In this document: in pieces, positions 4,860-48,080 of the stretch
Layout of the letters: each line of letters opens with the position of its first letter
Numbering within the stretch: the first letter of the stretch is position 1
Source: Xestospongia bergquistia
Taxonomy: Eukaryota > Porifera > Demospongiae > Haplosclerida > Petrosiidae
Direction: 5' to 3'
DNA length: 64,000 bases
Assembly (NCBI GenBank): GCA_963965975.1
Contig: OZ014412.1
Location: 622,501 to 686,500, forward strand
Made by a program: the position numbers and the translations under genes
Notes under the pieces: model-generated
The model's input: only the letters and a program-made list of their open reading frames with translations
The model's database searches: none
What the model was told of the DNA's origin: nothing

Positions 4860-7800
4860 TCAGACTGGGGTCACATAAAAACATTTTGTAACTTTCTCAA
4901 CATGATATTTTGCCTGTTCACCGGTAGATGTTAGTCCTCCAGTGATCTTTTCATTATTGAACATATTTTTGATAGTATCTGATGTCTTGTTAGTATTAGC
5001 TAGTATAGGAGGTAGTATATCATCATCTTGTACATTAGCTGGTATTATAGTAACACTAGGTATTGATGGCTCTATATCATCATAAGATGGAGGATGTTGT
5101 TCTTTTATTGGAGGGATATGAAGTATATCAGCATATACTACTTTATCACTAGATGGGGAAGGAGCTTGAGGTCGCTTTTCAGAAAATTTCTGCAGTTCTT
5201 GATAAACAACCTTTTCTTTTTTCTATGAAGATTATAATAATATAATTATATTAATGTATGTCAATAATTAACCTTATCATCATGATCACGAGCTTCTGTT
5301 AATTCATGAGTCCTATTTCTCTCAAAAGATGTTTTAGATAGACTTTGATCTCTCTATAACATTAGTAATATCAATATTATGTATGATATTAACTTACTAA
5401 TGGTCTATTAACTAAATAAACTCTATATTTTCCTAAGAAAAGATATATTAATAGTATTGTAGAGTGTATAAAAATTTACTTTTCCATTTATAGACTCCAA
5501 CTACTACAATGAAGATAATGATAATAATGAAAAGTACAACTAATGGAACTACAGTAGCAACAATTATAACTAAATAAATAATAAAGATATAAAAACTATG
5601 AAACAAATGTTTGTCTTACTAGGAAAAGCTTCACTTGTTATCATTCCACCAGCAGTATGAGATGATGTCATTGTTATAACTATATATCAGTAAACAATGA
5701 ACACACTGTGTTAAATATAAACTTACTTGTAGTAGATATATCAGGTATTATAATATCTCTTAATATTATAGCTGGTAATATTGATGTTAGTGGTATATCA
5801 TTCTCCACATCATGTACATAGACTGTATAATTACCAGCTGGGAGATTATAAATACAACTTTGTACAGTAAGATCACTTGGACTGTTTTTAACAAATGTTT
5901 TGTTCATTGAAGTCACTCCAATCACACTAACATAACATGACTTAGCAGATGGAGCAGATGAAAATACACACTCCACACATATAGAATTATCATTAGGGTA
6001 AGCAGTAGCATATATAACATCATATGTACCTATATCATATAATAATATCAATATATTACATAATATCACTATCTCTTACTTAAAGTATGTATCAATGGAT
6101 CAGTGTGTCCAGCATTATTACTGAAGATAATAGAGAGACTACAGAGTTGATGTTGAGGGGCTGACAGATTATCTGTTATGTTCATAGATTGACTTGAATA
6201 TTCTACCAGATATATTTTATTAAATATAACTACATCATCACATTGTACAATGACTGTAGCATTCTCTGGAGCTTCAGATGAACATTCCAGAATAATCTAC
6301 AGTAACTATGATAATCATATAGTAACCACTATTGGATAGACTCACTGGTATATTAAACATCAAGTTGACTTCATTATTTATATAGGACAGAATAGTAAAT
6401 GTAGTATTTTCTTTAGCAGATCTTGGAGCTAAAATGACATCATAAAAAAAACACACATATTAGTTATTTTAACAAACCTCTTTGAAAAGAGAAGGTACTA
6501 TTGTTATGTTCTCCTTCACCCAGTTCATTTATACCATATATGGTATATGTATATCGATGACGAAATAAATCCTGATCTTCATACTTGTATTCATTTCCAT
6601 TAATAGATACATTTTGTAATAACATCTTGTTGACATGATCATATATCAGTAGTATATAGTAAGATATCTGGACTCTATTGTTTACATTAGGATGATCCCA
6701 TCTGATAGTAATAGTAGTACAGTTGTCAAGTGATGAAGAAATATTGAGAACAGAAGTAAGAAAACCTGTCTCATACAAGAGATAATACACACACACAACA
6801 TAACATGTGATATATAACTTACCAAATAGAAATACATTGATAGTATGATCAAACTGTCCAGCTGGATTACTAAGCGTTACCTCAACAAGATATGTCCTCA
6901 AGTTAACAGGTGATGATATATTAACTATTATCAATTGATTATTAACTGAAGACAGTGTCACATCATAAGATAATGTTTGTTGTAAAACATCATTAGAGTC
7001 CTTGATATTTATTGTAACATTAGTAGGATACTCACCAATACATAGACCACTGACCTAAAAGAGATAACATCACAAAAAGGAAATGTAATTTATTATAACT
7101 ATATAAACTGACTATACTAATGAAACCTAACAATATAATGTGGTATATCTTAATATTCTAATAATATAATTCTACATTATAGTATAGTCAGACTATAATT
7201 GTTATATTATCAAGAACACTTGTTGTCTACAAACTAACATTGATAAACACTTGAAATAAAACATTATCTCCATCTACTGTTGGTATAACTGATACTGGAA
7301 TAGTTTGAGGAACTGAAATATAACAGAAATGTAACATCACTGTATAACATAATATGTTACCTCTAGCAATATAGAACGTGACATTATTACTATCTCCTAT
7401 ACCAGCTCCATTAATACCAGAGACATAAACAGTAGCTACATTACAAGCTTCTAGCATGTACTCAGTAGTATTAACTGTGTCTATAAGTCTTCCTTGATCA
7501 TCATTGATGTTATATCCAGTGATAGGTACATTATCCAATGTATATGGTGCAGACCACATCAGTAACACACTAGATCCATTGAGAACTGTAGCAGTTAGAT
7601 CTTTAACAGGAGCTAGTAAACCTACATCAATATATCATAATAATATGACATCTATAACATTAGCTCACCTTGTATTCTTAATACAGCAATGTTACTGTAT
7701 AGATTCAATGGAGAGCCATATGCTTTACATGATATATTAGTGTTGTTATTATCTTTTAATGCTTTTGCTAATAATCCTCTTCTCAGTTTACCATGACTAA

Positions 7801-8120
7801 GAGTATGTGCAGATTGTTGAATAAATCCTTTGCTTAAAACATCTTGTCTATCTGCTGAATTATTGTTTACTTTAAAGTCAATCAGATGAACAACAGTGAT
7901 CACTGATTCGCCAATAACTCTAAAGATAGTTTCATCAGCAACTGCTTCACAAGTAAAAGTAATTGTTGAATTAAGAGTGGTATTGACTGACTGAGGATGA
8001 ACTGTAAAATCTGTGTAATGTTGTAGTAATCATGATGATTAAAAAATAAGCATGAAACTTACCAACTGCATTTACAGCTGAAATAATTGACATAATAACA
8101 GTGAGTAATATACAAGTCAT
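4860..8120 (-). CDS. Ig/FN3 type I receptor with tandem ITIM-like tail (828 aa)
   Basis: Spliced from 14 exons: 8120-8063, 8010-7669, 7621-7361, 7312-7239, 7054-6823, 6765-6478, 6428-6346, 6296-6080, 6029-5727, 5679-5620, 5569-5480, 5432-5398, 5353-5273, 5222-4860. The coding sum is 2487 nt with phases agreeing at every GT-AG join. Order: signal peptide (1-19), divergent Ig-like domain (20-133), FN3 (134-220), split FN3-like (221-322), FN3 (323-418), second split FN3-like (419-518), four-cysteine membrane-proximal domain (519-619), linker, transmembrane helix (about 640-666), 160-residue tail. The tail has VVYQEL (713-718), VVYADI (736-741) and PPSY (752-755). The Ig exon carries a 16-codon insertion relative to its paralogues. 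The C-terminal 25 residues do not match the sister gene. Probably a cell-surface receptor that recruits SH2 proteins; ligand unknown. Confidence 0.85.
5124..5210 (-). other. Tandem ITIM-like motifs in the cytoplasmic tail
   Basis: Two hexapeptides, VVYQEL and VVYADI, fit the ITIM consensus (V/I/L/S)xYxx(V/I/L). The tyrosines (Tyr715 and Tyr738) are 23 residues apart, a spacing suited to tandem SH2 domains of SHP-type phosphatases. Both lie on the cytoplasmic side of the predicted helix. Function is inferred from the consensus. Confidence 0.75.
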
Positions 8121-8214
8121 CTTGTTGACTACTATTATAATAAGAAAAAAATTCAAAACTAGTACTATATAGGATGTTATGCTATTTTGTATTACACACA
8201 CATATATAATGTGT

Positions 8215-8537: not shown

Positions 8538-11500
8538 TACATATGTATATATAAATATATAAAGCTAAACAGCTAAATACATCATTATAAGAACCAAACT
8601 GACACTCTATGAACACTATATAGTAGTAGATGTATAGAGACTAGAATGTGTGATGTTTTCATTTAATGTAGTATATATTATAATAATTGTACTGACCTTT
8701 CTTTATGAATAATATTTAATTTTTGTATAATACAGTACACTTGTTGCTACTATAGTATTATCATGATTCACACATGACATGTATAGTTGTGATAAGAAAT
8801 TATTGGCATACTAACTTATTGGGCTTTATCATAATTCACACATGACAGTTTTGATAAAATAGCTGATGTCACTGGATTTCCTAATTATCTCTAGTCAGAT
8901 ATTACATATTTTGGTACAAACTTATATAGTTACAATATATAATACTCAGTTCTGTTATTGTATCTCTTCTTTTAAATTATTGAATGTTCTATATTGATAA
9001 GTCAATAGTATGTAAACAAATATTGTCAGTTAATTACAATACTACAGAAATTCCCCATAATAAATTGTGCACTCCCTCACAGATTAGAATAAATGAGGTG
9101 TTTGCGTACACAATATTGTTTGCATATATTTTGCACAATATAGTAATTTTATATGATATTAATTTAAGGATGGATTAAATTGTTGTATAAGGAGGGAGTA
9201 TACAGTTGTCACTACTTCAATCATAATGTTACTCATTGCAGTTATAACAAGAAATTATTGCTTGGGTCAGTAACAAATAGTCACTTTATGAGCTACCAAT
9301 CATCTGGTATTTTCAAGAAGTGTAGTGTGAAACTGGTTCTACACAAGTAGTTAATTGATGATATTACAAACAGATTTAGATATCATGAGATTCCTAATTT
9401 TCTTTTTATGGTGAATGTTACATTTTGATACAAGCTACATATATAACAAACATTGTATCAAAAATTGTATCATGGCTCAAGACATCCTTTCACCTTTATC
9501 ATGTATCTTTTTATTTCCTATTTAACAAATTTCAAAGAGAATAAGTCTTGATTAGGTTTTATTTGAGATAATTATATGTTAGTTGTTTGTGACTAAGTTC
9601 TTGGCTATCAGTGCCATCCTGTATTCACATGTTTTATATGATTGAATAAAGCTGATTAAATTTGTTAGATCATTTACACATTTCAATTGTTGCATTATTT
9701 AAAGATACTTCTATGTAGTTTTCAAGTGTAAGAGATGTCACTGTAACTCCATTATGCTAGTGGCTTTGATAACTTTTAGATTTTCTCAGAATCAGACGTT
9801 TGTTAGCTTGAAGTTGATTGCTATTGTGGCACTTCATATTATAATTTTATATGTATTGTTTAAATTCATCCTTACCTTACAAGTAGACTGCTGAAGTTGG
9901 CCTCACGTTAAGCCTTCCTGACATCCTTGTGGTTTATTGGTTTTGCGTGGGTGTAATCAACGGGTGGAGCTGTTATAATATTTTTGATTTTCTTTTTAAT
10001 TTAAAGATTAATAATATATATACATATTATTATTTAATTAAAAAGACCTGAAGATGCTTGAGCAATACCCTTAACAATATAATTGTTGTATATAACATAA
10101 GAATACATACTATTACTGAACTGGTTATAATAAAAGTCAATACTGAAGTCATAAATTATTACAATAGCAATATGAACCATACCTACTTGTATATCAATAG
10201 AAACTTAATAAATTAAAAAAACATTGAATTATATCTTTAAAGTTATTATTGTAGAACTTATTACCTAGATTGTGACAATAGAGATTATAATTCAGACAAA
10301 CAATTATCAATTAATAATAATGAAAGTCTATTTACTTTATGATATGAAAAAGTCAAATATTCTATTCAATTTTACAACAAACTGGACATCTTCTCTTTTG
10401 TATCAATACCTCTTAACATTTGAATGCTCCACACTAGTAAGTGTTGTTTTTCACTTTTCTGTCATTATTGTACAAAACACTAGTGTACTACATTTACTTT
10501 TACAACAGTCACAATTAATCTTGTTCTTAGCCTACTCTACTCCATGGTAAAGGATAGTCTGGTACCTTTGCTTAATGTTCTTGGGATAAGAAGTCTAAAT
10601 TGATAAAATAAAGATGTTTATTGTCCATTTCCTGTTTCCTTCAAGTCTTAAAATAGTAACATTTAGATGTCAGGTTATGATAACTATTTCATTTGCCAAA
10701 ATTGAAATGGAGTAATTTCAACAGACATAGTAATAAAAGTGTACATATTATTACCTATCCCAAAAAAATGGAGAAAGATACCAGACTACCTTCACAGTGG
10801 GTCATACATAGTCATAGTAAACTGATGAAACTAGGTCATACAGTATTGTATTAGTACATACAAGATATATGTAAAAATAGTTAATATTGTCAACCACAAA
10901 CCTTTTTATACCATCCTTAACAATTTTAACAAAATACATGTGAATATGATTAATACAATTGACCACAAACCTCAGTAGGCAAGTAATAATATTTTTTCAA
11001 CTTTTGTTGGGTAAAGCACCACAAAACTCTTATTTAAAGTCAATAGCTTGAACTAGTAACCTAAAGAATGTCACATACACAGCAGTAGCTAACCATCATC
11101 AACAGCTCTTATGAGCATACTTACAGGGTAGGATTTTTTACCTATCATGAATTTGAATGTGGTCAATGGAAGTCATTTTAATTATTGCCTCATTTTGTAC
11201 ATATTAGAAGGACTTCAAGTATCTAGTAGCTAATGTGATCATCAACACATCCTTTTAATTCTTTTATAATAAGTGCAGCCATTGGTAAATCAGGAGACAA
11301 TTCCATGTCACATACTTAATATACTATACTTCTTGAAATAAATCTGCATACAATTCTAACAAAGTATGTTTTTAAAATTCTATTCACAGTAAAGATGGCA
11401 GTGTTTTATATTTATGTTGATTCTGATTGTAATTGAATTTGTGCTATTTTTAATAATCAATTTAATTTTGAAGTTAAATATAAACACATGTAAAAATGTA

Positions 11501-12956
11501 ATATATAACTGTTCATTATAATATTATTTCAGGAAAAAATGACTTTAAATTTATGGAGTGGAATATCATCCAATTAAGCTTGTATTATGTGTCTGACAAA
11601 ATGATTTTTCTGTTTTTGCTAAAATAAAATCTCTAATTTTAATAGTTACAATACCAGTATTTATTGTTGAACTATATCATACAATGAACATTAACAATCA
11701 TCTTTCAGCAAATGTTATCAGGAAATCTTCAATCACATCTGTGATCCTACTTTCAAAACCTTTTTTATAAGTAAACAATATCATCTCATCATTATGTTGG
11801 TGACTATAATAACATGTACATTTTTAGATTAAAAATTAACTAATGTATGAATCTACAAAGTGTTGTTAAGAATAGACAAAATAGTATGTTAATTTCCTAT
11901 TTTCAATGTAACAATTCATATAATTGGTGTGGTGATGCATTATTTATTATGTATTGTTACTTTTGTTATTTTGACATTATACTATTTAGTGTATATTATG
12001 TACTATAATGTATAAATTATATAGTCAGCATTGCATTGACAAACATTTAAAAGTAAAACATTTTGAAATTATAAAATATGACGAGGAATCAATGATAATG
12101 CAAAACATGAAATAAACAAGGTAGAAATAAACACACATATCAATGTATTAAAATTCCTACATAATTACCTAATCAATATGACACGATGAGCTATTCAGAT
12201 TTCTATATATTGTAGGAAAGAGTATATTGTATTTTTATTGAAATTGTACTATAAAGCTTCTAGCTAAATTATGACAAAGATAGATGTCTTACTATTTGAA
12301 AAAAGACTTGATATAGGTGCTCAAATATGCCTAATATTATAGAGCTATTTTAAAATCATCATCATGTTTAAATTGAATGCAGCAGCCATTTTTCTGGTGG
12401 GATCTCTACATATTTTGAGCATTACTGTGCCTAATGATAATTATAATGATCCAGAGAACATATGTACAGAATAGAACAATGTTGAATAGTATTTGTCAAT
12501 ATACCTCATTACATGGGTAGAGTCAGAAAATTCATCCACCCACTAATAATCACTTATTAACTAGTTAACATTATTCATAGTGGGAGTTGATCTAAGCATA
12601 CTTTGTGGCACACTATTGCATAAAGTACTGACCACTAAAACAAATTAGGTTTACATAACTATTACATTTACTTGTAGTTACTATTACATTGGAATGTATG
12701 GAATCTGAGGATAGTACCACAATGTCTATATACTTAGTAGCAGTCACTTTTGAGAAATTAAAGACTATAACTTTTAAAGTTCTCAACATAACGTTTGTCC
12801 AATTATCCTGAAGAAAATCTCAAGAAAATTCTAAATAATATTTTCTAAACAGTTAATTGCTAAAAAAGCTATTTGACAATTCTTCGTTAAAACATTGTGG
12901 TACTGCCCACATTCCACATATTTCAATGTTATGCTCAGTTCTGTCTTTATGCAAAG
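8528..12956. other. Long intergenic region upstream of plus-strand receptor
   Basis: No convincing gene. From about 9181 to 10700 it is a diverged copy of 33801-36475, including a GAATAAAGCTGATTAAATT block (about 9640) that may be an old polyadenylation site. Positions 10101-10108 are the unoccupied counterpart of the transposon target at 34724-34731. From 10701 the sequence is shared almost perfectly with 20911 onward. Open frames here are short and not supported by homology. Confidence 0.5.
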
Positions 12957-14974
12957 ATGTCTGCCTTTGTCATCCTTGCAGTCTGTTTAATAAGTAGATG
13001 TTCTTCAACTACAAGTGAACTAATGACATCATAACCTTGTCAATAATGTATTGTTCTTGTTATACAGAGATTACTGTTCATCCTCAGTCAGTCAATACCA
13101 CTCTTAACTCAACAGTTAGTTTTACTTGTGAAGCTGTTGCTGATCTGATTGACTTTCAAGTAAATGATAGTTCAGCAGATACATCAGATGTTGTAAACAA
13201 AGGCTTTATTCAACAATCTGCACATGCTCTCAATAGTGGTAAAGTAAGAAGAGTGTTATTAGCTGAAGCATTAGAAGACAATAACAATACTAATATATCA
13301 TGTAAAGCATATGGCTCTCCATTGAATGTATACAGTAACATTTCTGTATTAAGAATACAAGGTAAGCTAATGTTATAGATGTCATATTATTATGATATAT
13401 TGATGTAGGTTTACTAGCTCCTGTTAAAGATCTAACTGCTACAGTTCTCAATGGATCTAGTGTGTTACTGTTGTGGTCTGCACCATATACATTGGATAAT
13501 GTACCTATCACTGGATATAACATCAATGATGATCAAGGAACACTTCTAGATACAGTTAATACTACTGAATACTTCCTTACATCTAGTAATGATGATCCAT
13601 GTAATGTAACTACTGTATATGTCTCTGGTATTAATGGAGCTGGTATAGGAGATAGTAATAATGTCATGTACTATATTGCTAGAGGTATAGCTTTTTTTTA
13701 GAAAAATAATTTACTTTTCATTTTACAAGTTAGCTCCCAAGAGTGGCTCTATACACTTATTATTGCTCATACAAACAACAGTCTATGATATGACAATATC
13801 AATACAAATATTTGTTAATGTAAGTACACCATCATAATAATAACAGTGAAAATAAACTGAATGTCATTATAATATATACAGGTGAGTCACCTTTGTCCTG
13901 GAGAGTATCCTACTAGTGTAGATATTATAATAAAGAATTCTACTGGTCATATAGTACATAGTCTCAATAATGGTACATTGTCTTTTATTACTGGACACCA
14001 GTTTGTTGTCAATGAGTATATTATATTGTCTAGTAAAGTTAATATACCTATATCAACTGAGGTTACATTCAGTAATCTTGATGGAGAATTTAATATATTA
14101 ACAGATGTGGAGTTCAGTAAGTCTATATAATTATTATCTCCTGTTTATTAATTGTTTGTTTTATTATAGTAACTTCAGTTAATATCAGTGTTAATAATAA
14201 CAGTATTTGTATCCAATGTTATTATATTAATAACACTACTAAATTAGGATGTCAAGTGGATCTAGTCAATGATAGTAAAGTACTTTATAGAGTCCAATTA
14301 TTAAAGAATTCAACTACTAACAAAGCTAATGATTGTATAGTAAATATATCAAGTGGTTACTATGACCTCTATACATATGATATTAATGAGAATAGTACAA
14401 TAAATACTGTTCCTATTGATATCATATATCAAGTATTTGTACCTACTGGGTTGATACTTAGACCCTCTGTAGTCGTATCTACTATTAACACACTCCCTTT
14501 AATACTACCATCATCATCAACAATAACAACAACAACAACAACAACAACAATGCTACCTTCATGTAAGTATTGTCTTGTGTCACTGATAACTATATATATT
14601 TCATTTTAGTTCAGTCTAATCTTAGTTCTAGTAAGACTCTTATCATTATTATATCAACCACTACATCAGTTATAATATTTGTGACAGCAATTTTGGCTGT
14701 AGTCATCATCATCATTATTATTATAGCTATCAAGAGATCTCAACAAAGTATATATAGCCCTATATATGATATCTTGATGTACAGTATATTTGTATTAGGT
14801 CACAATATAAATGTCAATGATATGAACACACAACAAAATGAAGCTTATGATGTTATTGGACAGTTTAGAGTAAATATGTCTGAAAATATGTCTTATGGAG
14901 ATATTACAACTCATAGACTACCAGTAAAAAACAATAACATCTATGATTATATTAGAAATAGTAACTTGATATAA
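9181..14974 (+). repeat. Older paralogous block (partner 33801-39452)
   Basis: Runs of clear similarity to 33801-39452 include TGTTGTATAAGGAGGGAGTA at the left edge, the region around 10560-10850, the upstream region 11640-12956 and the whole receptor gene. The two blocks differ by substitutions and large indels, including a 1166-bp transposon present only in the partner. This duplication is clearly older than the 10.2-kb tandem one. Confidence 0.75.
12957..14974 (+). CDS. Ig/FN3 type I receptor, copy A (551 aa)
   Basis: Eight exons: 12957-13014, 13068-13361, 13409-13684, 13734-13819, 13882-14116, 14170-14562, 14610-14747, 14799-14974; coding sum 1656 nt, phases consistent. Order: signal peptide (1-19), divergent Ig-like domain with CEAVAD and NNNTNISC cysteine contexts but no obvious core Trp (20-117), FN3 (118-209), split FN3-like domain containing HLCPGEYPT (210-316), four-cysteine membrane-proximal domain starting near SICIQC plus a poly-Thr stalk from an ACA repeat (317-447), Ile/Val-rich transmembrane helix (about 458-489), short tail. 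The tail has YDVI, YGDI and YDYI, all YxxI sites, but none with the hydrophobic -2 residue of a strict ITIM. The last intron (51 bp) is in frame, so it could be retained. Probable surface receptor. Confidence 0.85.
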
Positions 14975-15159
14975 AAACATTCACTTTCATTTCATTTATT
15001 GTTCAGTAATATGTTCTATATTACATGATTGAATGGGCTTTGGGTGGACATGAGGTATGTTGTGATTCACTGACTCAAGAATGTGTGGCTGATTTAAAAT
15101 ATGTCACTCTTTGTGTTATTGAGTAATAATCACAGACCTGCCAACCATGATATCACAGA

Positions 15160-15630
15160 TAGGCTTGTCCACTTTATGCTCATAAAATTGAGCATTATGC
15201 TTTTAAGCAATGCTTGAAAAACAGCTATTATGCTTTTAGTAAAATAAATTATGCTTGAAACTTGGCCCTATTATTCTCACATTATGCTGGAAATCAGTAC
15301 AGATGAAAAAACTTTTAATGTAGAAAACACTTAAAATGAATAGTAAATAGATAATTATCTTTTGTTATATTGCATCATTAATGAAGCTTCAATATAATCT
15401 TGAAGGCTGAATTGCTGACGATCACTAAATGAGTTCTGTAGCAACGAAAAACCCTTTCAGCAGCAGCTGAACTGGGTAGCACCAACAAAATGGTTTTACA
15501 CAAAATATTTTTTTATAGGAAATGGTACATATTATTCTCTAATTATTCCCTATTATGCTGGCATAATTCTACTATGCCAGCTCCTACCTATTATGCTCAA
15601 AATTATGCTCTCATGATGTGGACATTACCA
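15160..15630. mobile_element. Non-autonomous hAT-like element with TTATGCT repeats, copy A
   Basis: Flanked by ATCACAGA at 15152-15159 and 15631-15638 (the direct repeat can be extended to ATCACAGATA). The ends are imperfect inverted repeats sharing TGTCCAC, followed on both sides by many copies of TTATGCT or AGCATAA. The diverged relic at 2400-2480 runs straight across the site without the insert. Eight-base duplication and subterminal repeats suggest the hAT superfamily. No transposase inside. Confidence 0.7.
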
Positions 15631-15967
15631 ATCACAGATAATAAATATCAATATTTAATTACTCCATTATTCATGATTTCACCTTCAATGTTTTCTTTGG
15701 AGAGTAATTTTATTTCATCTCTTGAATCTACTATTTGTAACAACTATATTACACTAGCTAGAGTGTATGTTACCAAAGTATATAGTCTATATATATTATC
15801 ATTGTTATCAGTTGATATAATAGGTTTATATGATCTCATTTCTTTTAATACTGTGTTAATAATGATAACAAACCATATAAATACAACTATATTATATATA
15901 TATGTAATACAAAAGATTTATTCTTTTAAGTATGATATGGCAATATCATACTTTTCAGATATGGCAA

Positions 15968-16237
15968 TTACATTGTTATTATCTGCATGTCAACAAGATC
16001 AACTTGACCACAAGAGTTGAATTCGCTGGAAAGAATAGGCTTGACAACAACACCTGTAGTCTTGGGACGTTTCCTCTTCTCTTGACATACAACACAGTAG
16101 GACTTGAAGAGTTCAATAGCATCTGTTGTGATGTTGGCATACTTTTGCCTAAGATGTTTCAGATTCCTGTCACGACCACAGTGGCCAGTTGCAATGTGAG
16201 CTTTGCTGATGATGTTGTAGGTGCTATTACAACACAT
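15968..16237 (-). pseudogene. Integrase zinc-binding fragment (GIN/Ginger type), copy A
   Basis: An 89-codon open frame with an H-x4-H ... C-x2-C pattern (HIATGH ... CVVC) and a following GVVVKPILSSEFNSCGQVDL stretch. This resembles the HHCC domain and start of the catalytic core of the integrase-like proteins in Ginger transposons and their domesticated relatives (KRBA2/SCAND3 type). The catalytic core is missing, so it is a fragment. No flanking repeats could be matched. Confidence 0.65.
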
Positions 16238-16484
16238 TAAAGGAAGTGTGAACTGCTCTGAACTATGTATGATAAATCCTCAGAGTAGTCATCAAAGCTA
16301 TGGTATTATTTCCAGTTGAATTACTGTTTCATCAAAGATGTCTCATTGTGGTGATTGTCCATGAAAATCTGTAATAAAGAATTGTGTACAGATATTAAAA
16401 CTAATCGTATATTTATGAATAAACTTCCTTACAATACTTAAACAATGCTGAATTTCTACCAATATATCACATTCAGTGATTTTG

Positions 16485-16620
16485 CGAAATAACAAGAGCC
16501 TCATTTCAGTGATTTCATGAAATCACTAGGGTTTTTAGTGAATTTATGAACTCCCTAAGTGAAATAGTGATTTCACAAACTCCCTGAAAGTTTCAGGGAT
16601 TTCACAAAATCCCTATTTAG
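16485..16620. repeat. Cluster of short palindromic AGTGATTTCA motifs, copy A
   Basis: Repeated AGTGATTTCA / TGAAATCACT and CAGGGATTTCACAAAATCCC variants in both orientations, giving several overlapping small hairpins. Unknown origin; possibly a degraded foldback element. The copy at 26700-26835 is the same by duplication. Confidence 0.6.
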
Positions 16621-17154
16621 ACAATCTTACTGTAACATATATAAATTAACACTATATATACATACCTTGATAATGATCTTTTGTTGAATTTTATACCAGA
16701 CAGCTGAATTAAAAGCAAAGACAATTACTTTGTGTATTTATTGATCATTATTGTACACAATATCAATCATGTTTGCCATAAAATATATTTTTAAAAAAAC
16801 TTGCTCTATTTGATATAACTCATAGCAGTTAATTAGAATAATAAATATCATTATATTATAGACATACAAAAACAAGAACATACCATCTCAAGTTAAAATA
16901 TGATATTTTAATATTTTCTACAAAATGGGCACTAATATGTCACATGATATAAGATGACATATGACATCATATAATTGTCTGGGTAAGGAGCTTCATTGTC
17001 TAAGAAAGTCAATTTTTAGTTAATGAGTTATCATAATAGACTTTTTATAGTGATATTAAAATTATTTTATAGTTGTTTTTTTGCTAATCACTTTAATGAT
17101 TACATCATAGCAACACACATAGCAACTATATAAAGTAAATATAGGCACACCTGT

Positions 17155-17475
17155 ACTTCAGCTCAAAAAAAGTATATATCTCACAATGTAGTATTGAATA
17201 TCATATATAGATACTCAAATATACTTAAGAATATAATGGCTGAGTTAAAAATAGTTATGGGAGACATAAATTACACACAGATACGTTAGTGTATTTATAC
17301 ACAGAGCATTACATTAACAACAATACTTCCTTTATACTTCAGTTCAAAAAAAATATATATCTCACAATGTAAGTATTGAATAGATCATACATAGATACTC
17401 AAATATACTTAAACATATAATGGCTAAGTTAAAAACAGTTATGGGAAATATACATTACACATGATATGTCAGTGT
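17155..17475. repeat. Local tandem duplication of about 180 bp, copy A
   Basis: Two similar units start at about 17155 and 17335. Each contains TATATATCTCACAATGTA, GATACTCAAATATACTTAA and an ATAATGGCT.AGTTAAAAA block, with scattered differences. A copy is present at 27370-27690. Confidence 0.75.
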
Positions 17476-18219
17476 ATTAACAACACTACTTCCTGTTAAT
17501 ACATATAGACATAAGCTTTCAAGATTATAGTATAATTATATACTTATTATATTATTTTACCTGTTTCTCTTCAACACTTATTACTTCATTGATGAAGATG
17601 ATCTCCTATTCTATGTGTCTCTTAACTGATCTGTTTTTCTTATGTAATAGCCTCAGACAGTAACCTGGATCCATAAGAAAAGAATGGACTTTAAAATCAT
17701 CATGGGAAGGAGAGAGAACAAGAAGAGACATCTTTATCACACACTTCAGCAGCAATAATAATACGACTATGACCTACAAAAGACAACAGAGTTAATTAAT
17801 AATAGTTACATTAATGATAAAAACAATAAAGCATCACAAGACAGATTGAACACATTGTAGAATGTGATAAGAACATTCACAAAAAATATAGCAGACTAAT
17901 ACAAATGAGATACATTGATAGAATTTATACGAAGAAGCTATAAGACCAGATAGTTATAAAGGGAAGACAATTACTTATAAAGGACATTTAGTTATAAAAG
18001 AAAGACAATGTCTATTGAAGTAATAATGTACCTTCATATTAGAAGTACAAAGAAAGAATGTCATCATCATCCATATATTGAACTTCTTTACTTTTAGCAC
18101 ACTCAGATGAAGTGGACTCAATTTTGCTAATGCTATCTTCATGTTCTGTGATATTCTTGTCTTGAGCAATCAGTTAAGTCATTGTACATTATAAATGGAT
18201 TGCCATTATGGAAATAATT

Positions 18220-18633
18220 CTACATCCAATAGTTTTTATTTTGAACAGAGTCATCAGTGTCTTTAACAGCATTGACAAGACTTGTATGTGATTAATAGCC
18301 TTCTTTAGCCTTATAAGAGCATTAGTATTCTACCATTATAATATAGAGACTTTCTACAAAGTACCTTATTGGGTCAACTCCTTCTACTTCATGACCAAAC
18401 AGGTGATCCTCATGATCAAGATCACTGAATACATAAACAAGTTTACAGTTACTTTCTATAATATCAAGTCATTAAAACATTTTATAGTACTTACCATAGT
18501 GATCATACTGAGGACATATAGTGAATGATACCCACCTTCTGTCTTCAGTTATATGCTGAAGTAAATACATGAATTAGTTAGTACTACATGCAGAACATTC
18601 AGGGCATTTGCCACTTACCTTCTTTAACTTCAT
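18220..18633 (-). CDS. Small four-exon gene candidate, unknown product, copy A (75 aa)
   Basis: Exons 18633-18619, 18555-18495, 18455-18365 and 18280-18220 join in frame with GT-AG introns of 63, 39 and 84 bp, giving 75 residues and a TAG stop. The middle is acidic (VFSDLDHEDHLFGHEVEGVD). I do not recognise a family. The 39-bp intron is very short and the first exon holds only five codons. The open frame continues upstream of that ATG to a possible acceptor, so the true start may lie further upstream. Could be part of a larger transcript or not coding at all. It is identical in copy B. Confidence 0.35.
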
Positions 18634-18714
18634 ATTTAAAATAACAACTCGTGATGACGACTAATGCTATATATCATGTACCAGACAACCAGCTGCATAC
18701 AACAACTCAAATCA

Positions 18715-37494: not shown

Positions 37495-39452
37495 ATGTCT
37501 GTCCTTGTCATCCTTACCATCTGTTTGTTAAGTAGATGTTCTTCAACTACAAGTGAACAAATGACATCATAACCTTGTTAATAGTATATTGTTCTTGTTA
37601 TACAGAGATTACAGTTCATCCTCAGTCAGTCAATACCACTCTTAACTCAACAGTTAGTTTTACATGTGAAGGTGTTGCTGATCTAATTGACTTTCAAGTA
37701 AATGATAGTTCAGCAGATACATCAGATGTTGTAAACAAAGGATTTACTCAACAATCTGCATATACTCTCAATGGTGGTAAACTGAGAAGAGTATTAATAG
37801 CTGAAGCATTAGAAGACAATAACAATACTGATATATCATGTACAGCATATGGTTCTCCAATGAATTTATGCAGTAACATTGCTGTATTAAGAATACAAGG
37901 TGAGCTAATGTTATAGATGTCATACTATTATGATATATTGATGTAGGTTTACTAGATCCTGTTAAAGATCTAACTGCTACAGTTCTCAATGGATCTAGTG
38001 TCTTACTGATGTGGTCTGCACCATATACATTGGATAATGTACCTATCACTGGATATAACATCAATGATGATCAAGGAACACTTCTAGACACAGTTAATAC
38101 TACTGAGTACATCCTGACATCTAGTAATGATGATCCATGTAATGTAACTACTGTATATGTCTCTGGTATTAATGGAGCTGGTATAGGAGATAGTAATAAT
38201 GTCATGTACTATATTGTTAGAGGTATGGCGTTTTTCAGAAAAATGATTTACTTTCACTTTAGCTCCCAAGAGTGGCTCAATGCACTTATTACTTCTGATA
38301 CAACCAACAGTCTATGATACAACAATATCAATACAAATATTTGTTAATGTAAGTACACCATCATTATAATAACAATGAAAATAAACTGAATGTCATTATA
38401 ATATATACAGGTGAGTCATCTTTGTCCTGGAGAGTATCCTACTAGTGTAGATATTATAATAAAGAATTCTACTGGTCATACAGTACATAGTCTCACTGAT
38501 GGTACATTGTCTCTTATTACTGGACACCAGTTTGTTGTCAATGAGTATATTATATTGTCTAGTAAAGTTAATATACCTATCTCAACTGAGGTTACATTCA
38601 GTAATCTTGATGGAGAATTTAATATATTAACAGATGTGGAGTACAGTAAGTGTATATATTATCTCCTGTTTATTAATTGTTTGTTTTATTATAGTAACTT
38701 CAGTTAATATCAGTGTTAATAATAACAGTATTTGTATTCAATGTTATTATATTAATAATACTACTAAATTAGGATGTCAAGTGGATCTAGTCAATGATAG
38801 TAAAGTACTTTATAGTGTCCAATTATTAAAGAATTCAACTACTAACAAAGCTAATGATTGTATAGTAAATATATCAAGTGGTTACTATGACCTCTATACA
38901 TATGATATTAATGAGAATAGTACAATAAATACTGTTCCTATTGATATCATATATCAAGTATTTGTACCTAATGAGTTGATAATTAGACCCACTGTAGTCT
39001 TATCTACTATTTACACACTCCCTACAGTACTACCATCGACAACAACAATACTACCTTCATGTAAGTATTATCTTGTCTCACTGATAACTATATATGTTTC
39101 ATTTTAGTTCAGTCTAATCTTAGTTCTACTAAGATTATTGTCGTTACTATATCTACCACTATATCAGTAATAATAGCTGTGACAATAATTGTGGTTATAA
39201 TTATCATTATTGTTATCACCACTTTCAAGAGATCTCAACAAAGTATATATATATTCTCTTTATGTACAATATAATGTTATTATATTATTAGGTCACAATA
39301 TAACTGATAATGGTATTAACACACAACAGAATGAAGCTTATGATGTTATTGGACAGTTTAATATGAACATGAGTCATAACATATCATATGAAGATGCCAC
39401 ACCTTCTCCTAATAAAACACCAGATTATGTTAATGTTTTAAAATGTGAATAA
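37495..39452 (+). CDS. Ig/FN3 type I receptor, diverged copy C (536 aa)
   Basis: Exons 37495-37552, 37606-37899, 37947-38222, 38263-38348, 38411-38645, 38695-39060, 39108-39242, 39292-39452; coding sum 1611 nt. The domain order is the same as in copies A and B: signal peptide, divergent Ig-like domain, FN3, split FN3-like domain, four-cysteine domain, helix, tail. The Ig exon has an extra cysteine (LCSN where copy A has VYSN). The poly-Thr stalk is much shorter. The transmembrane segment and tail are the most changed: the tail keeps EAYDVIGQF but ends PDYVNVLKCE instead of the IYDYIRN end of copies A and B. PDYVNV fits the YxN site bound by Grb2-type SH2 domains. The final intron is no longer a multiple of three. 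Probable functional paralogue. Confidence 0.85.
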
Positions 39453-40653: not shown

Positions 40654-43600
40654 TTATTGCAATGTGTCATTATTATATACAGGATAATTAATAAGTAAGT
40701 AACTGGACCACATTTGTTGAGAAGCATGTTCATCAAACACAACTAATGAATTGTCACCTGAAATAGTAAATTGAATATTGTTAAAACTATCAATTTGAGT
40801 GAGTGAAAATGAATGATAGAATAAGTGAAAATAAATTATAGAATATGTGACAAACTATGTGAATTATGACTTTGAAGAATAGTAATGATGTTAAAATCGA
40901 TATAGATATAATGCGGTATATTAATAGCTCTATATTGTCTCTACTCAGCTATAGACTCTAATAATAGCTCAGTATTTATTATAGTCACTATAATTATACT
41001 GTATGTTACTATAGCCACTCAACAGTATACATAGTCCAAATATTTATAAGACATCTTGTGTTTATTGTCTACAGTACTTAACAGAATATGTAGCATTTAA
41101 ATTACAGATACCTCCAGAGATTAAACATAGAGGGAACACTGTAGTTATAAAGAGAACCATCTTGAGTATTGAGTACTACTTAAGAATTATTTATTACTAT
41201 GACGTCATGTTAATTATTTCACTCAAAAGTAAGTGGAAAATAGTTTTTGACTAAGGAATACGTTTATTATAATAACAAGTTCATTATTAATTCTGACCAA
41301 AGAGACTATTCTATTACACAGAGCAATAATAGTTACTATAAGAATGTAATAGTATTATTATCTCTTGGTAACTGATGATCTCTCATAACAAGACCTACAA
41401 TAAAGTCATATTATGTAATATATTATAAGAGTACTTACTGTTATGATAGTTCTCAGGAGAGTCTTCTTCAATATGAACAGGTAATGGTCCTTCATTATGA
41501 TATCCTATCTGGTGTTGAGGTGATACCAATATTGGCTCTACTTCACTGGTACTGGTAAGAGAAGGAGATGTTAGTCCTCTAATGATCTCTTTATCATTGG
41601 ACGTTTGTTTGGTAGTATCTGATGTCTTGTTAGTTTTCGTTGGTATAGGAGGTGGTATATCATCATCTTGTACATTAGCTGGTATTATAGTAACACTAGG
41701 TATTGATGGCTCTATATCATCATAAGATAGAGGATGTTGTTCTGTTTTTGGTGGAAAATGAAGTATATCAGAGTAAACTACTCTATCACTAGATGGGAGA
41801 TGAGCTTGAGGTCACTTTTTAGAAAATTTTTGATGATCGTGATAAACAACTTTTTCCTACCCAATAAAATAATATTATATACAATCTCTTATTATTATTA
41901 TTACTTCAATAGAAACTACACTCACTTCTACTTTAACATTCTCAGAACTCTCAGTATATGATATTAACTGAGTATTAACAATCTATAATATTAATAATAA
42001 TAGTAATATTAATAATGTATCATATAATAACTTACTGATGGTCTATTATCAGGATATGCTAATAAACTATCATCATTGTTTTTATCATTGTTTTTATTGT
42101 TTTCTATAAACAGTTTTAATACAATTTATATAACTAAATTAGCTCACTTATAATATAGTACACAATAAAAGGATGCAAATAAGAAAGTGATGATAATTAC
42201 AATTGACAATAATAAAACAGCAATAATCGGATTAACTACTAAAGAATCAAAATTAATATTAAAAAATAAAAATAATTGTCTCACTTGAAATATCAGATGA
42301 TGTTACATTGAGAGCAGTTGATGGTATAACTATTATTAACTCACTTGTAGTAGTTGGTAATATATCAGTTATTATAATATCTCTTAATATTATAGCTGGT
42401 AATATTGATGTTAGTGGTATATTATTCTCAACATCATATACATAGACTCTATAATTACCAGCTGGGAGATTATCAATACAACCTTGTACAGTAAGATCAC
42501 TTGGACTGTTTTTAACAAATGTTTTGTTCATTGAAGTCACTCCAATCACACTAACATAACATGACTTAGCAGATGGAGCAGATGAAAATACACACTCCAC
42601 ACATATAGAATTACCATTAGGGTAAGCAGTAGCATTTATAACATCATATGTACCTATATCATATAATAACATAAATATATTATATAATATCACTATCTCT
42701 TACTTAAAGTATGTATCAATGGATCACTGTGTCCAGCATTATTACTGAAGATAATAGAAAGAGTACATAATTGATGTTTAGGAGCTGACAAAGGTTGATT
42801 ATCTGTTATATTCATAAGTTGACTTGAATATTCTACCAAATATGTTGTATTAAATATAACTACATCATCACATTGTACAGTGATTGTAGTATTCTTTGGA
42901 GCTTCAGATGAACATTCCAGAATAATCTACAGTAACTATGATAATCATATAGTAACCACTATTGGATAGACTCACTGGTATATTAAACATTAAGTTGACT
43001 TCATTATTTATATAGGACAGAATAGTAAATGTAGTATTTTCTTTGGTAGATCTTGGAGCTAAAATGACATCATAAAATAAACACACATATTAGTTATTTT
43101 AACTAACCTCTTTGAAAAGAGAAGGTACTATTGTTATGTTCTCCTTCACCCAGTTCATTTATACCATATATGGTATATGTATATCGATGACGAAATAATT
43201 CCTCATCTTCATACTTGTATTCATTTCCATTAATAGATACATTTTGTAATAACATCTTGTTGACATCATCATATATCAGTAGTATATAGTAAGATATCGG
43301 GACTCTACTGTCTACATTAGGACGATCCCAACTGATAGTAATAGTAGTACAGTTGTCAAGGGATGAAGAGATATTGAGAACAGAAGTAAGAAAACCTGTC
43401 TCATACAAGAGATAATACACACACACAAAATAACATGTGATATATAACTTACCAAATGGAAATACATTGATAGTATGATCAAACTGTCCAGCTGGATTAC
43501 TAAGAGTTACCTCAACAAGATATGTCCTCAAATTAACAGGTGATGATATATTAACTATTATCAGTTGATTATTAACTAAAGAGAGTGTCACATCATGAGA

Positions 43601-43785
43601 TAATGTTATGATAAACAATTCACACTATGACTAAATATTGAAATATATTATATACTTCTAGCAATATAGTACACAACATTATTACTATCTCCTATACCAG
43701 CTCCATTAATACCAGAGACATATACAGTAGTTACATTACATGGATCATTATTACTAGATGTCAGTATGTACTCAGTAGTATTAAG
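40654..43785 (-). pseudogene. Broken paralogue of the ITIM receptor
   Basis: Closely related to the 828-aa receptor. Remaining parts, in transcript order: the second half of the FN3 exon (43785-43668), the second half of the next domain exon (about 43618-43453), FN3 (about 43396-43107), the second split FN3-like domain, the four-cysteine domain (about 42656-42346), a transmembrane exon (about 42235-42150), tail exons and a terminal exon (40757-40654) ending in TAA. Defects: no signal or Ig exon; a deletion removing the short exon and part of the next; a changed FN3 donor (AGAAGT instead of AGAGGT); and an in-frame TGA where the intact gene has CGA, between the two ITIM positions. The first ITIM is altered (VVYHDH); the second, VVYSDIL, remains past the stop. 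Its terminal exon may show the ancestral C-terminus. Confidence 0.75.
40758..41438. other. Intron or gap between tail exons of the broken receptor
   Basis: No domain seen. At 41112-41160 (minus) an ATG opens a short hydrophobic stretch (MVLFITTVFPLCLISG) before a possible GT donor; it could be a stray signal exon but has no partner. Confidence 0.3.
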
Positions 43786-45428
43786 TACACATAAATATTT
43801 AATGAACAATGTAAATGTATTTTATTTTAAATGCTGTTAATAATTTAAACATTAATATAGTAATAATACTTTAATAAAGATGTATTAGTTTGAGATGTAA
43901 TGCAATTCATGATTGGGTTGGTGCATTGACTGTAGACATGTATAGTACAAATTAACAAGCTGTGTAATACATTGCTCATTTCATTACAAGTCATTGACGT
44001 TTTGATTATATCACATTAATCAGGTGAAGTACAAATTAGTCATAATAAAATAAAACTGTTAAAAACAATTGTCATTGCTTTTAATCCAGTTTATAACATA
44101 AAAGACAGATGACTGATAGAAAGTGAGAATATTATCAATGTTTAATAACTGAGAGTTATTAACACTTTGTATCATCAAATCATACTATAAAATAGAATTG
44201 AAAAGTTCTGTTTTGTTTGGGAGAAAACTCATTTTAGAAGAACGTTCATAAGACTTATGTAAATCAATCATTATAATAAGTGATCAATTTTCATTGACAA
44301 TCCAGAGGATACATAGCCTTACATAATAACATGTGCTGTAACTAATCATATATTAGATATAAAATATTGTTTCAACAACATAGCTATATACACTGTTCAA
44401 GGTAGCAAAGAATCTTCCACTCTCAGTGTTTCATTTTTCATGTCCTGTTCTTAATTGCCACACTTATCTTTTTATTTTTTCTCTTGTTTAGTTACAAATC
44501 TATGTTATCAGACTTCATTTATTCAATAACTTTCAATAAGAAGAATTACTACTTCCTGTTTCTGGACATCTATAAAATTTAATGTCAGTAACCATTTTAA
44601 GTGGTAAGTAGATATCGTGATCACTAACTATTGTTTCCTTCAATAGAACCAATGTCAATTAATTCCAATGTGGATGTAAGAGAATGCAGAATTATGTGTG
44701 TATGTGTAGAACTGAAGTCAAGTCACTGAATTATGACTACTGATCAGGTGTCACTGTATCATGTACACTTCAAAACAAACTCTGTTTAGTACAGGTAACT
44801 ATTAGCCAGGTTTTTCCAGGTTGTATGAATTTACTTATTATTCATTATTATGATAATACACATTAATGTCCAATCAAACTTCATTTACATATGATCCTCT
44901 TAACTGATCAACTGAAGAGAAAGAAACTGATATTCTTTACCACCATCACTCAAAAAACTCTGCTTTGAGGTATGTGTTTGATCGATCTCAATGACCATTA
45001 TCATTACTATTATTAACTTTAACATTCATCTCAATAACATCTAGCACTTATATAAAGTGAAGAAACATTTATGGGCTATTAATTCATAGCAAATATAAGT
45101 ATTAATATGAATGGTTCTCTTCCTCCATGATTATTATAATAATTATAATATATATATTGTAGTTATTACATATGATACTTGTCTATATATGTTACATATA
45201 TAGACAAGTATCTGATATAATATTATTATTATCTACTATGATATAGAATATCATATAGTCACAATAGTCACATGCATGTTAGATTATAATGTTTTATTGA
45301 CTAATGCTACCACTGAAAAGTGTCACATTATAATTTGATAAAATTTTATTTATAATCTTTGAACAATTTATATATTTGATATATTATCAAACATTTGTCA
45401 AACAGAATTATTACAATAATAATTATGT
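43786..45428. other. Intergenic; former 5' region of broken receptor replaced
   Basis: No gene, no receptor exon and no recognised transposon. Similarity to the receptor family ends abruptly at about 43785. A perfect hairpin lies at 45174-45212. Confidence 0.5.
45174..45212. repeat. Perfect 18-bp inverted repeat with 3-base loop
   Basis: GATACTTGTCTATATATG, then TTA, then its exact reverse complement. It is about 220 bp downstream... in + coordinates below the stop codon of the minus-strand receptor at 45429, so it would fall in that gene's 3' flank. Confidence 0.8.
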
Positions 45429-46633
45429 TCAAATGATATTAACATAATTAGGTGTTATTGTAACAAGTTCATAAGATGTATTCTGTGTCATTGTTATCTG
45501 ATATTGTTTAGTATCTTCATATGATATATTATGTTGTATAGTTATATCATCATCAATACTATTACACTCTATAATATAATATAATTAGATTATATTACAT
45601 GCATACATCATGTACATACTGTGCATCTTCTTTATATAATAAACACCCACACAAACACTGGAGATAATTAGTATTATTAAGATACTAATGATGATCACAG
45701 TGATAACTATTATAACTAGAGAAAGAGAAGTTATATATAAATATTTAATTATAATAGCTATCTTACTAGGCGAACTTAAAGATTTGTGTACTGGCAATCC
45801 ATTAGTAAAAGATGGTATGACCAGTATTGTAGAATGGGATTGAATAGCGTGAGTGGCATCTCTAATATTGGAGGTATCTACAATATATAAATGAGATAGT
45901 AATTATTGTACATTTTAAGCTGATTTAGTTGGTTAATTAAAAGATGATATCATCAAAGATGTTTTAACTAGGAAACATTAACAATATAATATTGTTGGTA
46001 TATCATCACATTTAATTCTACTATGTAGTTAATTATATTGACAATTATAGGGGGTTATATAATTATATTACACAACTCACCATGCATAAATAAGTAACAT
46101 TCAATATATATCTTACCATTAACTGTACCAGTAGATAATATAACTGATATAGAAGTTTCTTTACCTAGAAAGAGATGGCATGGTTAATATACTGTAATTA
46201 GAAAAACCCTATTGATATTACATTGATCACTAAATAAATAAATTAAAGAGTTTATAGTAGCTCAAGTTATAATCAGTTAACATTATCTTACCATCAACTG
46301 ATGTACTAGGAGTAATAACATGTGTAGATGATAACTCTGGTACAAATATTTGTTGTATTATTTGAACAGGTATAAAATTAAAAGAATTATCACTTTCAAT
46401 ATCATAGACATAGAGATCATATAATCCTGTAACAATGTCTACACATCCACTAGATGTACTAGATGTGATAGGACTTCTTAAGAACTGCTTTTCAAGTATA
46501 ATAATATCATTTTGTAATAAGTTGATCAGACATCCTAACTCTGTAGCTCCATTAATAAAGTAACATATAATACATATAGAACCAAGATTAATATTAACTA
46601 TCACATTCTGTATACCATGAGTAGCTATAATAG

Positions 46634-46667
<34 letters not shown>

Positions 46668-48080
46668 TACTATTTTATTGTACTTACTAAACTTAACATC
46701 AGTGATTGTATTAAATGTTCCATCAAGATTACTAAGAGTAACTTCACCAATATATGTCATATCAGGACTTAATATAATAGAGTTAGTTATATTAATAGAT
46801 GGTCCACTAGTTAATACATTACTCATTATAGTATATATCACTTTACCAGTAGTAGAATTCTTTATATCTACTATAACATTAGTAGGGTATTCTCCAGGAC
46901 AAAGATGAGTTACCTAATAAAATAATATTATACAATAAGTACATATTATTAAAATTATCATAAAAGTAATGTGAGTAAACTTTTAAAATACCTACACATA
47001 CTGATACAAAATATATCAGTATATATGCATCTTATGTTAACTATTAACTATTAATACAAGCTGTTAATATTAATTTAACTGCATGTCAACTATTATATCA
47101 TGTATGAATAGAAGTGAGTATATTATGTACATTTTTCATATTATGTACATTTTTCAAATATTAAAACGTACTTAATCGATATATAATAATATGTATAATA
47201 TCTTACATTAACTGATATAATAATATGGACCATATTCTCTGATACTACTGGAATAACATTCACAGGTATTAATGAACTGTTTTGAGGTACTGTAATAGAA
47301 AGTGAAAATAAAGTTAATAAAAACGGGTATAGATACTTTGTTTATTATTAATAATATATCATAACAAATAATTAAGAACATACCTTTTGGGAAATAAAAT
47401 GACACATTAGATATGATACCATTACCAGCTGTATTAATAGCAAATACATCTACTTTTATTTCAGCACAAGGATTTGTTTCATTAGATCCACTTTGATATG
47501 ATAATTGTAGGGACTCTGTGAAATATGTCTCTATTTCATTTGTTAGTGTGTTAGTAATAGTAATATTGTAGCCATTAATATATGTATTATCAAGAGTATA
47601 TGGAGTAGACCAAGATAATGTTACTGTATTAGTACTAGTAACATTAACAGTTAGATCTCTAACACCCTCTAATAAACCTATAATGAGAAAATAAAAGTCA
47701 TGTAGTTATAAATATAGTACATGATATATACCTTGAATTAATAATAACACAGTGTTACTAATATCATCAGATAATGGTGATGTATTAATGGCAACACAAG
47801 ATATATTAGTATTATTGTTGTCTTCTCTTGGATTAACTAATAAAACTCTTCTTCTTATTGTATTATTGACAGTTTCTGTATTTTGTTCATGAAATCCTTT
47901 ACTTGCAATATTAGCATCATCAGCTGGTGTATTATTGGCATGAAAGATTATAAACTCAGCTCTAGCTATACAAGTGAAGTTAACAGGTCCTGAGTTTACA
48001 GTAGTATTCACACGTAATGGATGAATTAGTATCACTAAGAGAGGTAACATGATAATGAAAATACTATTGGATAGTGTCAT
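45429..48080 (-). CDS. Ig/FN3 type I receptor with ITSM-like tail (559 aa)
   Basis: Exons 48080-47732, 47677-47384, 47289-47207, 46913-46688, 46624-46292, 46164-46117, 45877-45767, 45715-45620, 45568-45429; coding sum 1680 nt. Signal peptide and Ig-like domain are read here as one exon (1-116). A splice inside it is also possible, since a GTAAGA and a CTCTTAG flank the signal part. Then come FN3 (117-214), a split FN3-like domain with HLCPGEYPT (215-317), the four-cysteine domain (318-428), stalk (429-481), helix (about 482-508) and a tail of about 50 residues. The tail has SYEDT, TSYELV (544-549, fits ITSM TxYxxV/I) and a terminal NYVNII (YxN). It is the most diverged intact family member here. 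Upstream 48120-48180 may hold a 5' exon. Confidence 0.8.

What the first reader, a model, noticed from the sequence alone, without database searches (positions are those of the whole stretch)
4860..48080. Multi-gene, two-strand Ig/FN3 receptor cluster with differing tails
Five closed receptor models, one broken copy and several orphan exons share ectodomain design, but their tails differ: tandem ITIM (4860-8120), YxxI sites (copies A and B), YDVI plus YVNV (copy C), TSYELV plus YVNII (45429-48080). A family that keeps its ectodomain plan while swapping signalling tails looks like an activating/inhibitory recognition complex. Previously undescribed system is possible; role in allorecognition is inference.
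Basis: partly seen in the sequence, partly recalled or inferred. Interest (0 to 1): 0.88.

Follow-up and report, generated by a model that had tools for sequence, protein, structure and literature searches.

The report
Sponge paired-type immune receptor cluster
This stretch of a sponge chromosome is part of a large cluster of surface-receptor genes in which similar recognition domains are attached to different signalling tails, some carrying the inhibitory motifs known from vertebrate immune receptors; what they recognise is unknown.

Summary
All five receptor models close with in-phase GT-AG introns and the stated tails. Copies A and B share a 10,154-bp exact repeat, so four sequences are distinct. 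All named homologues are from the sponge Amphimedon.

The window is a slice of a larger complex. Of 65 strong matches to the first FN3 exon on contig C2, 49 lie at 441-770 kb. All listed ITIM-exon (44), short-tail (15) and ITSM-form-tail (8) matches lie on C2.

Module swapping is real. On a weakly resolved tree of the N-terminal Ig exon, tail class is as scattered as in shuffles. Three of three cross-chassis pairs share Ig+FN3 and diverge at the FN3 exon end. One pair shares all six ectodomain units but has ITIM versus ITSM-form tails. In Amphimedon, a 99%-identical Ig occurs with an ITIM tail and with a short tail.

The genome also holds seven stop-free single-ORF SHP-type phosphatases besides an apparently intron-bearing one.

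Best reading: a paired-type immunoreceptor complex. Ligands, expression and the sign of the non-ITIM tails are unknown; allorecognition is untested.

The parts
4860..8120 (-). G1: 14-exon receptor, 828 aa: signal peptide, Ig (D1), FN3 (D2), D3, FN3 (D4), D5, D6, stalk, TM, ITIM tail ('L' chassis)
   Evidence: GT-AG, phases; FN3 over cut-off; fold, on an Amphimedon homologue
7669..8010 (-). G1 Ig exon (D1)
   Evidence: 81% aa identity to copy A D1
5193..5210 (-). ITIM 1, VVYQEL
   Evidence: Y kept in 10 of 13, whole motif in 8 of 13 paralogous exons
5124..5141 (-). ITIM 2, VVYADI
   Evidence: Y and I(+3) kept in 13 of 13 paralogous exons; similar site VEYADI in Amphimedon P0004
12957..14974 (+). 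Copy A: 8-exon receptor, 551 aa, 'S' chassis (D1-D2-D3-D6-TM-short tail)
14846..14857 (+). Copy A YDVI; YGDI follows after 12 residues (14894-14905), then YDYI (14942-14953)
10757..20910 (.). First unit of the exact tandem repeat (second unit 20972-31125)
   Evidence: 10,154-bp exact run
23172..25189 (+). Copy B, identical to A
37495..39452 (+). Copy C: 8-exon receptor, 536 aa, S chassis; YDVI 39339-39350, YVNV 39426-39437
41395..43800 (-). Broken L-chassis copy: D1, first half of D2, D3a and start of D3b missing, stop in the ITIM exon; VVYSDI present
45429..48080 (-). G4: divergent S-type receptor, 576 aa; ITSM-form site TSYELV 45462-45479, YVNI 45435-45446
2934..3116 (-). Orphan family Ig (D1) fragment
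   Evidence: E 2.6e-15

Best explanation
A sponge multigene complex of paired-type immunoreceptors. Each receptor is built from a recognition module (N-terminal Ig D1 and FN3 D2) and an output module (D3-D6, TM, tail). Recognition modules are spread by gene conversion or unequal exchange among output modules of several kinds: L chassis with ITIM tail, L chassis with ITSM-form tail, and S chassis with NxxY/YxxI/YxN tail. Similar ligand-binding faces are therefore read out by different intracellular signals. Inferred steps: Src-like kinases phosphorylate the tails; ITIM tails recruit SHP-type SH2-SH2-PTP phosphatases and inhibit; other tails recruit different SH2/PTB readers, perhaps promoting a response; the cell integrates the balance. 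Shown here: gene structures, module sharing, motif conservation, and presence of such phosphatases and kinases in the genome. Not shown: expression, phosphorylation, ligands, signalling sign.
For: 26 ectodomains (A and B counted apart) with all exons in phase in 264 kb. Tail labels on the D1 tree: 13 changes against a shuffled mean of 13.8, as low in 70 of 200. Cross-chassis pairs: g35 (L, ITSM-form) v g33 (S) D1 2.4%, D2 3.7%, then D3b 43%, D6 55% nt difference; G1 v copy A D1 11%, D2 5.8%, then 43% and 55%. In 3 of 3 cross-chassis pairs compared by blastn (g35/g34, G1/A, g10/g2) the homologous block ends within about 4 bp of the D2 exon end. g3 (ITSM-form) v g11 (ITIM): D1 4.0% to D6 4.4%, different tails. 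The ITIM exon also lies behind ectodomain exons that resemble this family only weakly, at C2:890-893 and 934-937 kb. Amphimedon P0004 (ITIM tail) and P0014 (short tail) D1 99% identical. Pooled D1 dS 0.31-0.35 against 0.05 in D4 and 0.03-0.04 in D6. Seven stop-free single-ORF SH2-SH2-PTP genes plus an apparently intron-bearing one; one matches SHP-2 (PTPN11), E 1.1e-153, over residues 2-509 of 520. SH2-kinase ORFs at C6:1.62 Mb, Src-like by eye.
Against: No transcripts; models are from sequence only, and outside the window signal exons were not modelled and the D6 donor was found in only 6 of the 26. The D1 tree is weak: 7 of 22 inner branches starred, 12 open; the G1/copy A grouping has 82/70 support. 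6 of its 26 genes have no tail of the three classes, and g2, labelled ITIM, has neither motif. No canonical ITAM seen. D1 dN/dS below 1; N excess in its variable loops is not significant (p 0.17) and the loops were chosen after seeing variability. SHP also serves growth-factor signalling (general knowledge), so its expansion need not concern these receptors. Two ITIMs in one tail are not rare by chance.
Confidence: 0.7

Rival explanations
1. Allorecognition complex: the D1 modules are polymorphic self-markers or their receptors, and the balance of ITIM and non-ITIM tails decides fusion or rejection.
For: Works like Botryllus FcoR (ITIM, hemITAM and YxxI/L/V core motifs in a linked Ig receptor family; passages of PMC12065747); large linked multigene locus with the most divergent exon at the N-terminal Ig and D3a.
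Against: No polymorphism data; the terms fibronectin, immunoglobulin, tyrosine and receptor occur 0 times in the main text of the Amphimedon grafting transcriptome paper PMC5450542 (term search only); D1 dN/dS below 1.
Confidence: 0.27
2. Microbe/symbiont recognition by paired receptors: pathogen pressure spreads the same recognition face to tails of different sign, as proposed for CEACAM1/CEACAM3 and seen in Siglec-11/16.
For: Gene conversion or coevolution of ectodomains between receptors with opposing tails is described there (abstract starts of PMC5112662 and PMC5701461 in a listing); sponges are microbe-rich filter feeders (general knowledge).
Against: No ligand or induction data for these genes were found or examined.
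Confidence: 0.4
3. Ordinary adhesion-molecule expansion: tails only control endocytosis or cytoskeleton (NPxY/YxxPhi), and motif differences are drift in relaxed paralogues.
For: dN/dS 0.39-1.01 across exons; 6 of 26 tree genes without a recognised tail; NxxY-type sites in short tails; Ig/FN3 folds like LAR, contactin, DCC.
Against: Second ITIM kept in 13 of 13 exons; ITIM and short tail classes also in Amphimedon; shared recognition modules on different output modules.
Confidence: 0.2
4. Assembly artefact inflates the family (false tandem duplication).
For: A/B exact over 10,154 bp.
Against: The other copies compared differ from each other in most exons and lie in both orientations.
Confidence: 0.05

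Closest known systems
Uncharacterised 'fibronectin type-III domain-containing' proteins of Amphimedon queenslandica (e.g. LOC109583147, LOC109583152)
   Different: Known only as predicted proteins; second half of the ectodomain and tails diverged; several of the database models lack a clear TM
Botryllus fester co-receptors (FcoR)
   Same: Linked Ig receptors with ITIM, hemITAM or core YxxI/L/V tails (passages read)
   Different: FcoR have a sushi domain, not found here by Pfam; homology not tested directly
Vertebrate paired receptors CEACAM1/3, Siglec-11/16
   Same: Similar ectodomains with different tails, gene conversion between them (abstract starts in a listing)
   Different: Different phylum and domain plan (Ig-FN3); several chassis here, with the shared block ending at the FN3 exon
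Hydractinia Alr family
   Same: Candidate allorecognition genes with ITAM/ITIM (secondary citation in PMC12065747)
   Different: Not compared by sequence here; no FN3 in Alr as recalled

Membership tests
Paired (activating/inhibitory) receptors, a functional class | Closely similar ligand-binding domains on different tails | tested here: met
   (ligand binding itself inferred from the N-terminal position)
Paired (activating/inhibitory) receptors, a functional class | Inhibitory member with conserved ITIM | tested here: met
   motif and its conservation; inhibition itself not tested
Paired (activating/inhibitory) receptors, a functional class | Activating member (ITAM, or charged TM residue for an adaptor) | tested here: inconclusive
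   copy A has YDVI-x12-YGDI, others ITSM-form or YxN sites, no canonical ITAM (spacing rule recalled); TM charge judged by eye
Paired (activating/inhibitory) receptors, a functional class | Shared ligand, co-expression | not testable with these tools
   no expression or binding data
Botryllus FcoR | Sushi domain in ectodomain | tested here: not met
   Pfam at E up to 1 on G1, A and G4 (3 of the 4 distinct window proteins): none listed
Botryllus FcoR | Allelic polymorphism linked to fusibility | not testable with these tools
   one assembly
Hydractinia Alr | Sequence homology to Alr1/Alr2 | not tested
   no Alr sequence compared; no cnidarian among 17 and 30 hits, which does not exclude it
SHP (PTPN6/PTPN11) phosphatases, for the C3/C7 ORFs | SH2-SH2-PTP with catalytic Cys | tested here: met
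   Pfam on 2 of the 7 ORFs, SHP-2 match of 1, HCS[AS]GIGR in 6 of 7 and QCSNGIGR in one, genome search

The most novel reading that the evidence does not exclude
This C2 complex is a sponge self/non-self locus: a mosaic paired-receptor system in which interchangeable Ig+FN3 recognition modules are read by ITIM, ITSM-form and other tyrosine tails, co-amplified with single-ORF SHP-type phosphatase genes. It would place ITIM-SHP paired recognition in the sponge lineage.
Probability: 0.25. Interest if true: 0.95.

Novelty: new variant of a known kind. Interest (0 to 1): 0.8.

Why it matters
Receptors with similar recognition domains and opposing tails are known from vertebrates and, recently, tunicates. 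A linked, mosaic ITIM receptor complex in a sponge, with amplified SHP-type phosphatases, would give the search for sponge immune or allorecognition receptors a concrete locus: C2:0.42-0.94 Mb here, and the homologous family in Amphimedon, where grafting has been studied. In the listings of my searches (each shows at most 20 papers, only 15 of 944) I saw no title or abstract start that describes such a family; subscription journals are mostly not held and bioRxiv is not.

Tried and rejected
A second protein search, with an alignment, scored 7,988 candidates and none passed; I suspect that low-complexity words filled the list, so this is not evidence of absence. Pfam on the full-length proteins puts FN3 and a phage-J Ig-like model above cut-off in G1 only; FN3 is below cut-off in A and G4, and Ig is weak in A. 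The Ig assignment of D1 therefore rests on the fold of an Amphimedon homologue (mean pLDDT 57.8 overall, about 75-88 in D1). A PF15330 (SIT) label on P0022 was followed and dropped: just below its cut-off, and in what looks like a fused neighbouring gene. Foldseek gave general Ig/FN3 strings. The PF00041 genome search (150 of 2,143 candidates scored) lists mainly FN3 exons on C5, C7, C10 and elsewhere and none from this complex. Positive selection on D1 loops is suggestive only. Species identity was not established; 'demosponge related to Amphimedon' is inference from homologues. The D1 tree left out 7 of 33 aligned D1 exons: exact copy B and chains 17, 29, 37, 41, 43, 47, to which no tail was assigned.
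Full report
What was checked. A and B are one sequence, in a 10,154-bp exact tandem repeat.

What organism. All 17 hits of G1 in a 5.8-billion-protein set are Amphimedon queenslandica (7,988 candidates scored). A search with an Amphimedon member gave 30 hits, 28 Amphimedon and 2 from metagenomes. The window's genome has 146 Mb in 21 contigs and the window lies at C2:622,501-686,500.

How big the complex is. With 100 kb on each side, family exons occur through most of the 264 kb. Chaining gives 59 pieces; 26 of them have every expected ectodomain exon, in phase and without stops. In those 26 the donor of D6 was sought only near the template end and found in 6; A, B and C have it further on. Genome-wide, the first FN3 exon (D2) gives 94 matches. 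With E below 1e-30 there are 65 on C2 (one with a stop) and 2 on C1 (both with a stop). Of the 65, 49 lie at 441-770 kb, 9 at 1.87-1.93 Mb, 5 at 2.25-2.37 Mb and 2 at 10.7 Mb (150 of 229 candidates scored, so a lower bound). The ITIM exon gives 44 matches, all on C2; the short tail 15 and the ITSM-form tail 8 (two with stops), all on C2. Matches are exon pieces, not genes.

Chassis and tails. L chassis: D1 Ig, D2 FN3, D3, D4 FN3, D5, D6, TM. S chassis: D1, D2, D3, D6, TM. ITIM tails occur on L (chains 5, 6, 8, 9, 11, 15, 20 and G1; not every one keeps both motifs, and chain 20 has a duplicated ITIM exon). ITSM-form tails occur on L (3, 35; TVYGLV, TAYGLV) and on G4 (TSYELV). Short tails occur on S. 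In chains 0, 13, 16, 28, 54, 57 I recognised none of the three tails in the roughly 1 kb read. ITIM, ITSM and ITAM patterns are recalled definitions.

Modularity. A D1 DNA tree of 26 genes (7 of 33 aligned D1 exons left out: copy B and six chains without an assigned tail) needs 13 changes of the four tail labels against a shuffled mean of 13.8; 70 of 200 shuffles are as low, so tail class is not detectably clustered by recognition domain. The tree is weak (7 of 22 inner branches starred, 12 open), but starred branches alone force at least 4 changes for ITIM, 4 for short and 3 for ITSM. Pairs make it concrete: g35/g33, D1 2.4% and D2 3.7% different, but D3b 43% and D6 55%; g10/g2, 8.1% and 11.0%, then 43% and 55%; G1/copy A in the window, 11% and 5.8%, then 43% and 55%. 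By blastn the shared block stops within about 4 bp of the D2 exon end in 3 of 3 cross-chassis pairs compared (g35/g34, G1/A, g10/g2); it starts at about the D1 exon in the last two and reaches about 0.9 kb upstream in g35/g34. In g3/g11 the D1-D6 exons are shared (3.5-9.4% different, D3a 20%) and the tails are ITSM-form and ITIM. At C2:890 and 934 kb the ITIM exon (76% and 83% identical to G1's over about 75 residues) lies behind exons on the same strand that match this family only weakly (D2 34%, E 5e-6, and D6 27%, E 0.03, at 890 kb; D6 34%, E 2.5e-4, at 934 kb); those genes were not spliced. In Amphimedon, P0004 (ITIM-type tail) and P0014 (short-type tail; its model has no clear TM) have D1 99% identical. 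So recognition and output modules recombine at two junctions, after D2 and after D6. Gene conversion and unequal crossing-over are not told apart here.

Rates. Pooled synonymous divergence is 0.31-0.35 in D1 and 0.30-0.43 in D3a, against 0.03-0.10 in D2, 0.04-0.06 in D3b, 0.05 in D4, 0.11-0.15 in D5 and 0.03-0.04 in D6: the N-terminal Ig and D3a are old or diversified, most membrane-proximal parts homogenised or recent. dN/dS is 0.66-0.75 in D1 and 0.39-1.01 elsewhere. For 7 close pairs D1 gives 0.59, below D2 (0.88) and D3b (0.85). Variability inside D1 falls in three stretches (residues 33-45, 51-59, 81-91), the last after the second Cys. N/S there is 1.16 (excess p 0.17) against 0.53 in the framework, but the stretches were chosen by variability, so this is only a lead.

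Readers of the tails. SH2 search of the genome: 81 matches. At C3:1.265-1.284 Mb (five), C3:0.916 Mb (one) and C7:8.318 Mb (one) there are seven single-ORF SH2-SH2-PTP genes matched over the whole query without stops. The C3 array also holds one interrupted copy and phosphatase fragments. A copy spread over several ORFs, so apparently with introns, is at C6:199.6-202 kb. One array member matches SHP-2 (PTPN11) over residues 2-509 of 520 (E 1.1e-153), and Pfam finds two SH2 and a phosphatase domain in the two ORFs scanned. That the single-ORF copies are retrocopies is inference. Two array ORFs have HCSSGIGR and QCSNGIGR in place of HCSAGIGR. Two SH2-kinase ORFs, Src-like by eye, were read at C6:1.62 Mb.

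How it most likely works. Shown: shared recognition modules on different tails, a conserved second ITIM, several SHP-type genes. Inferred: phosphorylated ITIM tails recruit SHP and inhibit; other tails give a different, perhaps positive, signal; the response follows the balance. Ligands are unknown; microbe recognition and allorecognition both fit.

Literature. Botryllus FcoR are the nearest working analogue (passages of PMC12065747). CEACAM and Siglec pairs were seen as abstract starts in a listing. PMC5041008, PMC9505182, PMC6208332, PMC4704026 and PMC8242945 were seen as passages. The sponge passages speak of Ig and FN3 domains in general (more enriched in the Amphimedon genome; more abundant in LMA than HMA sponges, cited), not of this family. 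PMC5450542 and PMC12018476 were seen as passages.

The recognition module was narrowed to D1+D2, since the 5' flank is shared in one pair only; dS ranges, identities at 890/934 kb, tree support and left-out rows were corrected.

Noticed in passing
C3:1265445-1283513 and 916203-917690, C7:8318058-8319539, C6:199.6-202 kb (loci L031-L034, L036): Seven stop-free single-ORF SHP-type (SH2-SH2-PTP) genes, one interrupted copy and fragments, and one copy apparently with introns.
   Followed up: partly
C6:1.62-1.70 Mb (locus L035): Ten SH2 matches in long ORFs; the two ORFs read at 1.62 Mb look like Src-type kinases by eye.
   Followed up: partly
window 52037-57249 (-): Mobile elements: DUF4371 fragment (hAT-type, recalled), then integrase-, RT- and weakly gag-like ORFs; GC 38-40% at 48-60 kb against 26-31% in the receptor part.
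   Followed up: partly
window 31100-33600 (+): Separate Ig gene exons (Ig_3/I-set); a truncated start of it is repeated at 20.8 kb by the tandem duplication.
   Followed up: partly
C2:617.1-617.6 kb (locus L018): Neighbour gene (chain 20) with a duplicated ITIM exon: VVYEDL, VVYADI, a decayed IIYEKP, VVYADI, and VQDDDIPPPIP repeats.
   Followed up: partly
window 57976-58278 (-): PHD-finger ORF (E 6.9e-7).
   Followed up: no
G000 C9:1.99-2.15 Mb, C5:0.47-0.78 Mb, C10:0.97-1.08 Mb: Repeated tyrosine-phosphatase-like exon matches, perhaps receptor PTP arrays.
   Followed up: no
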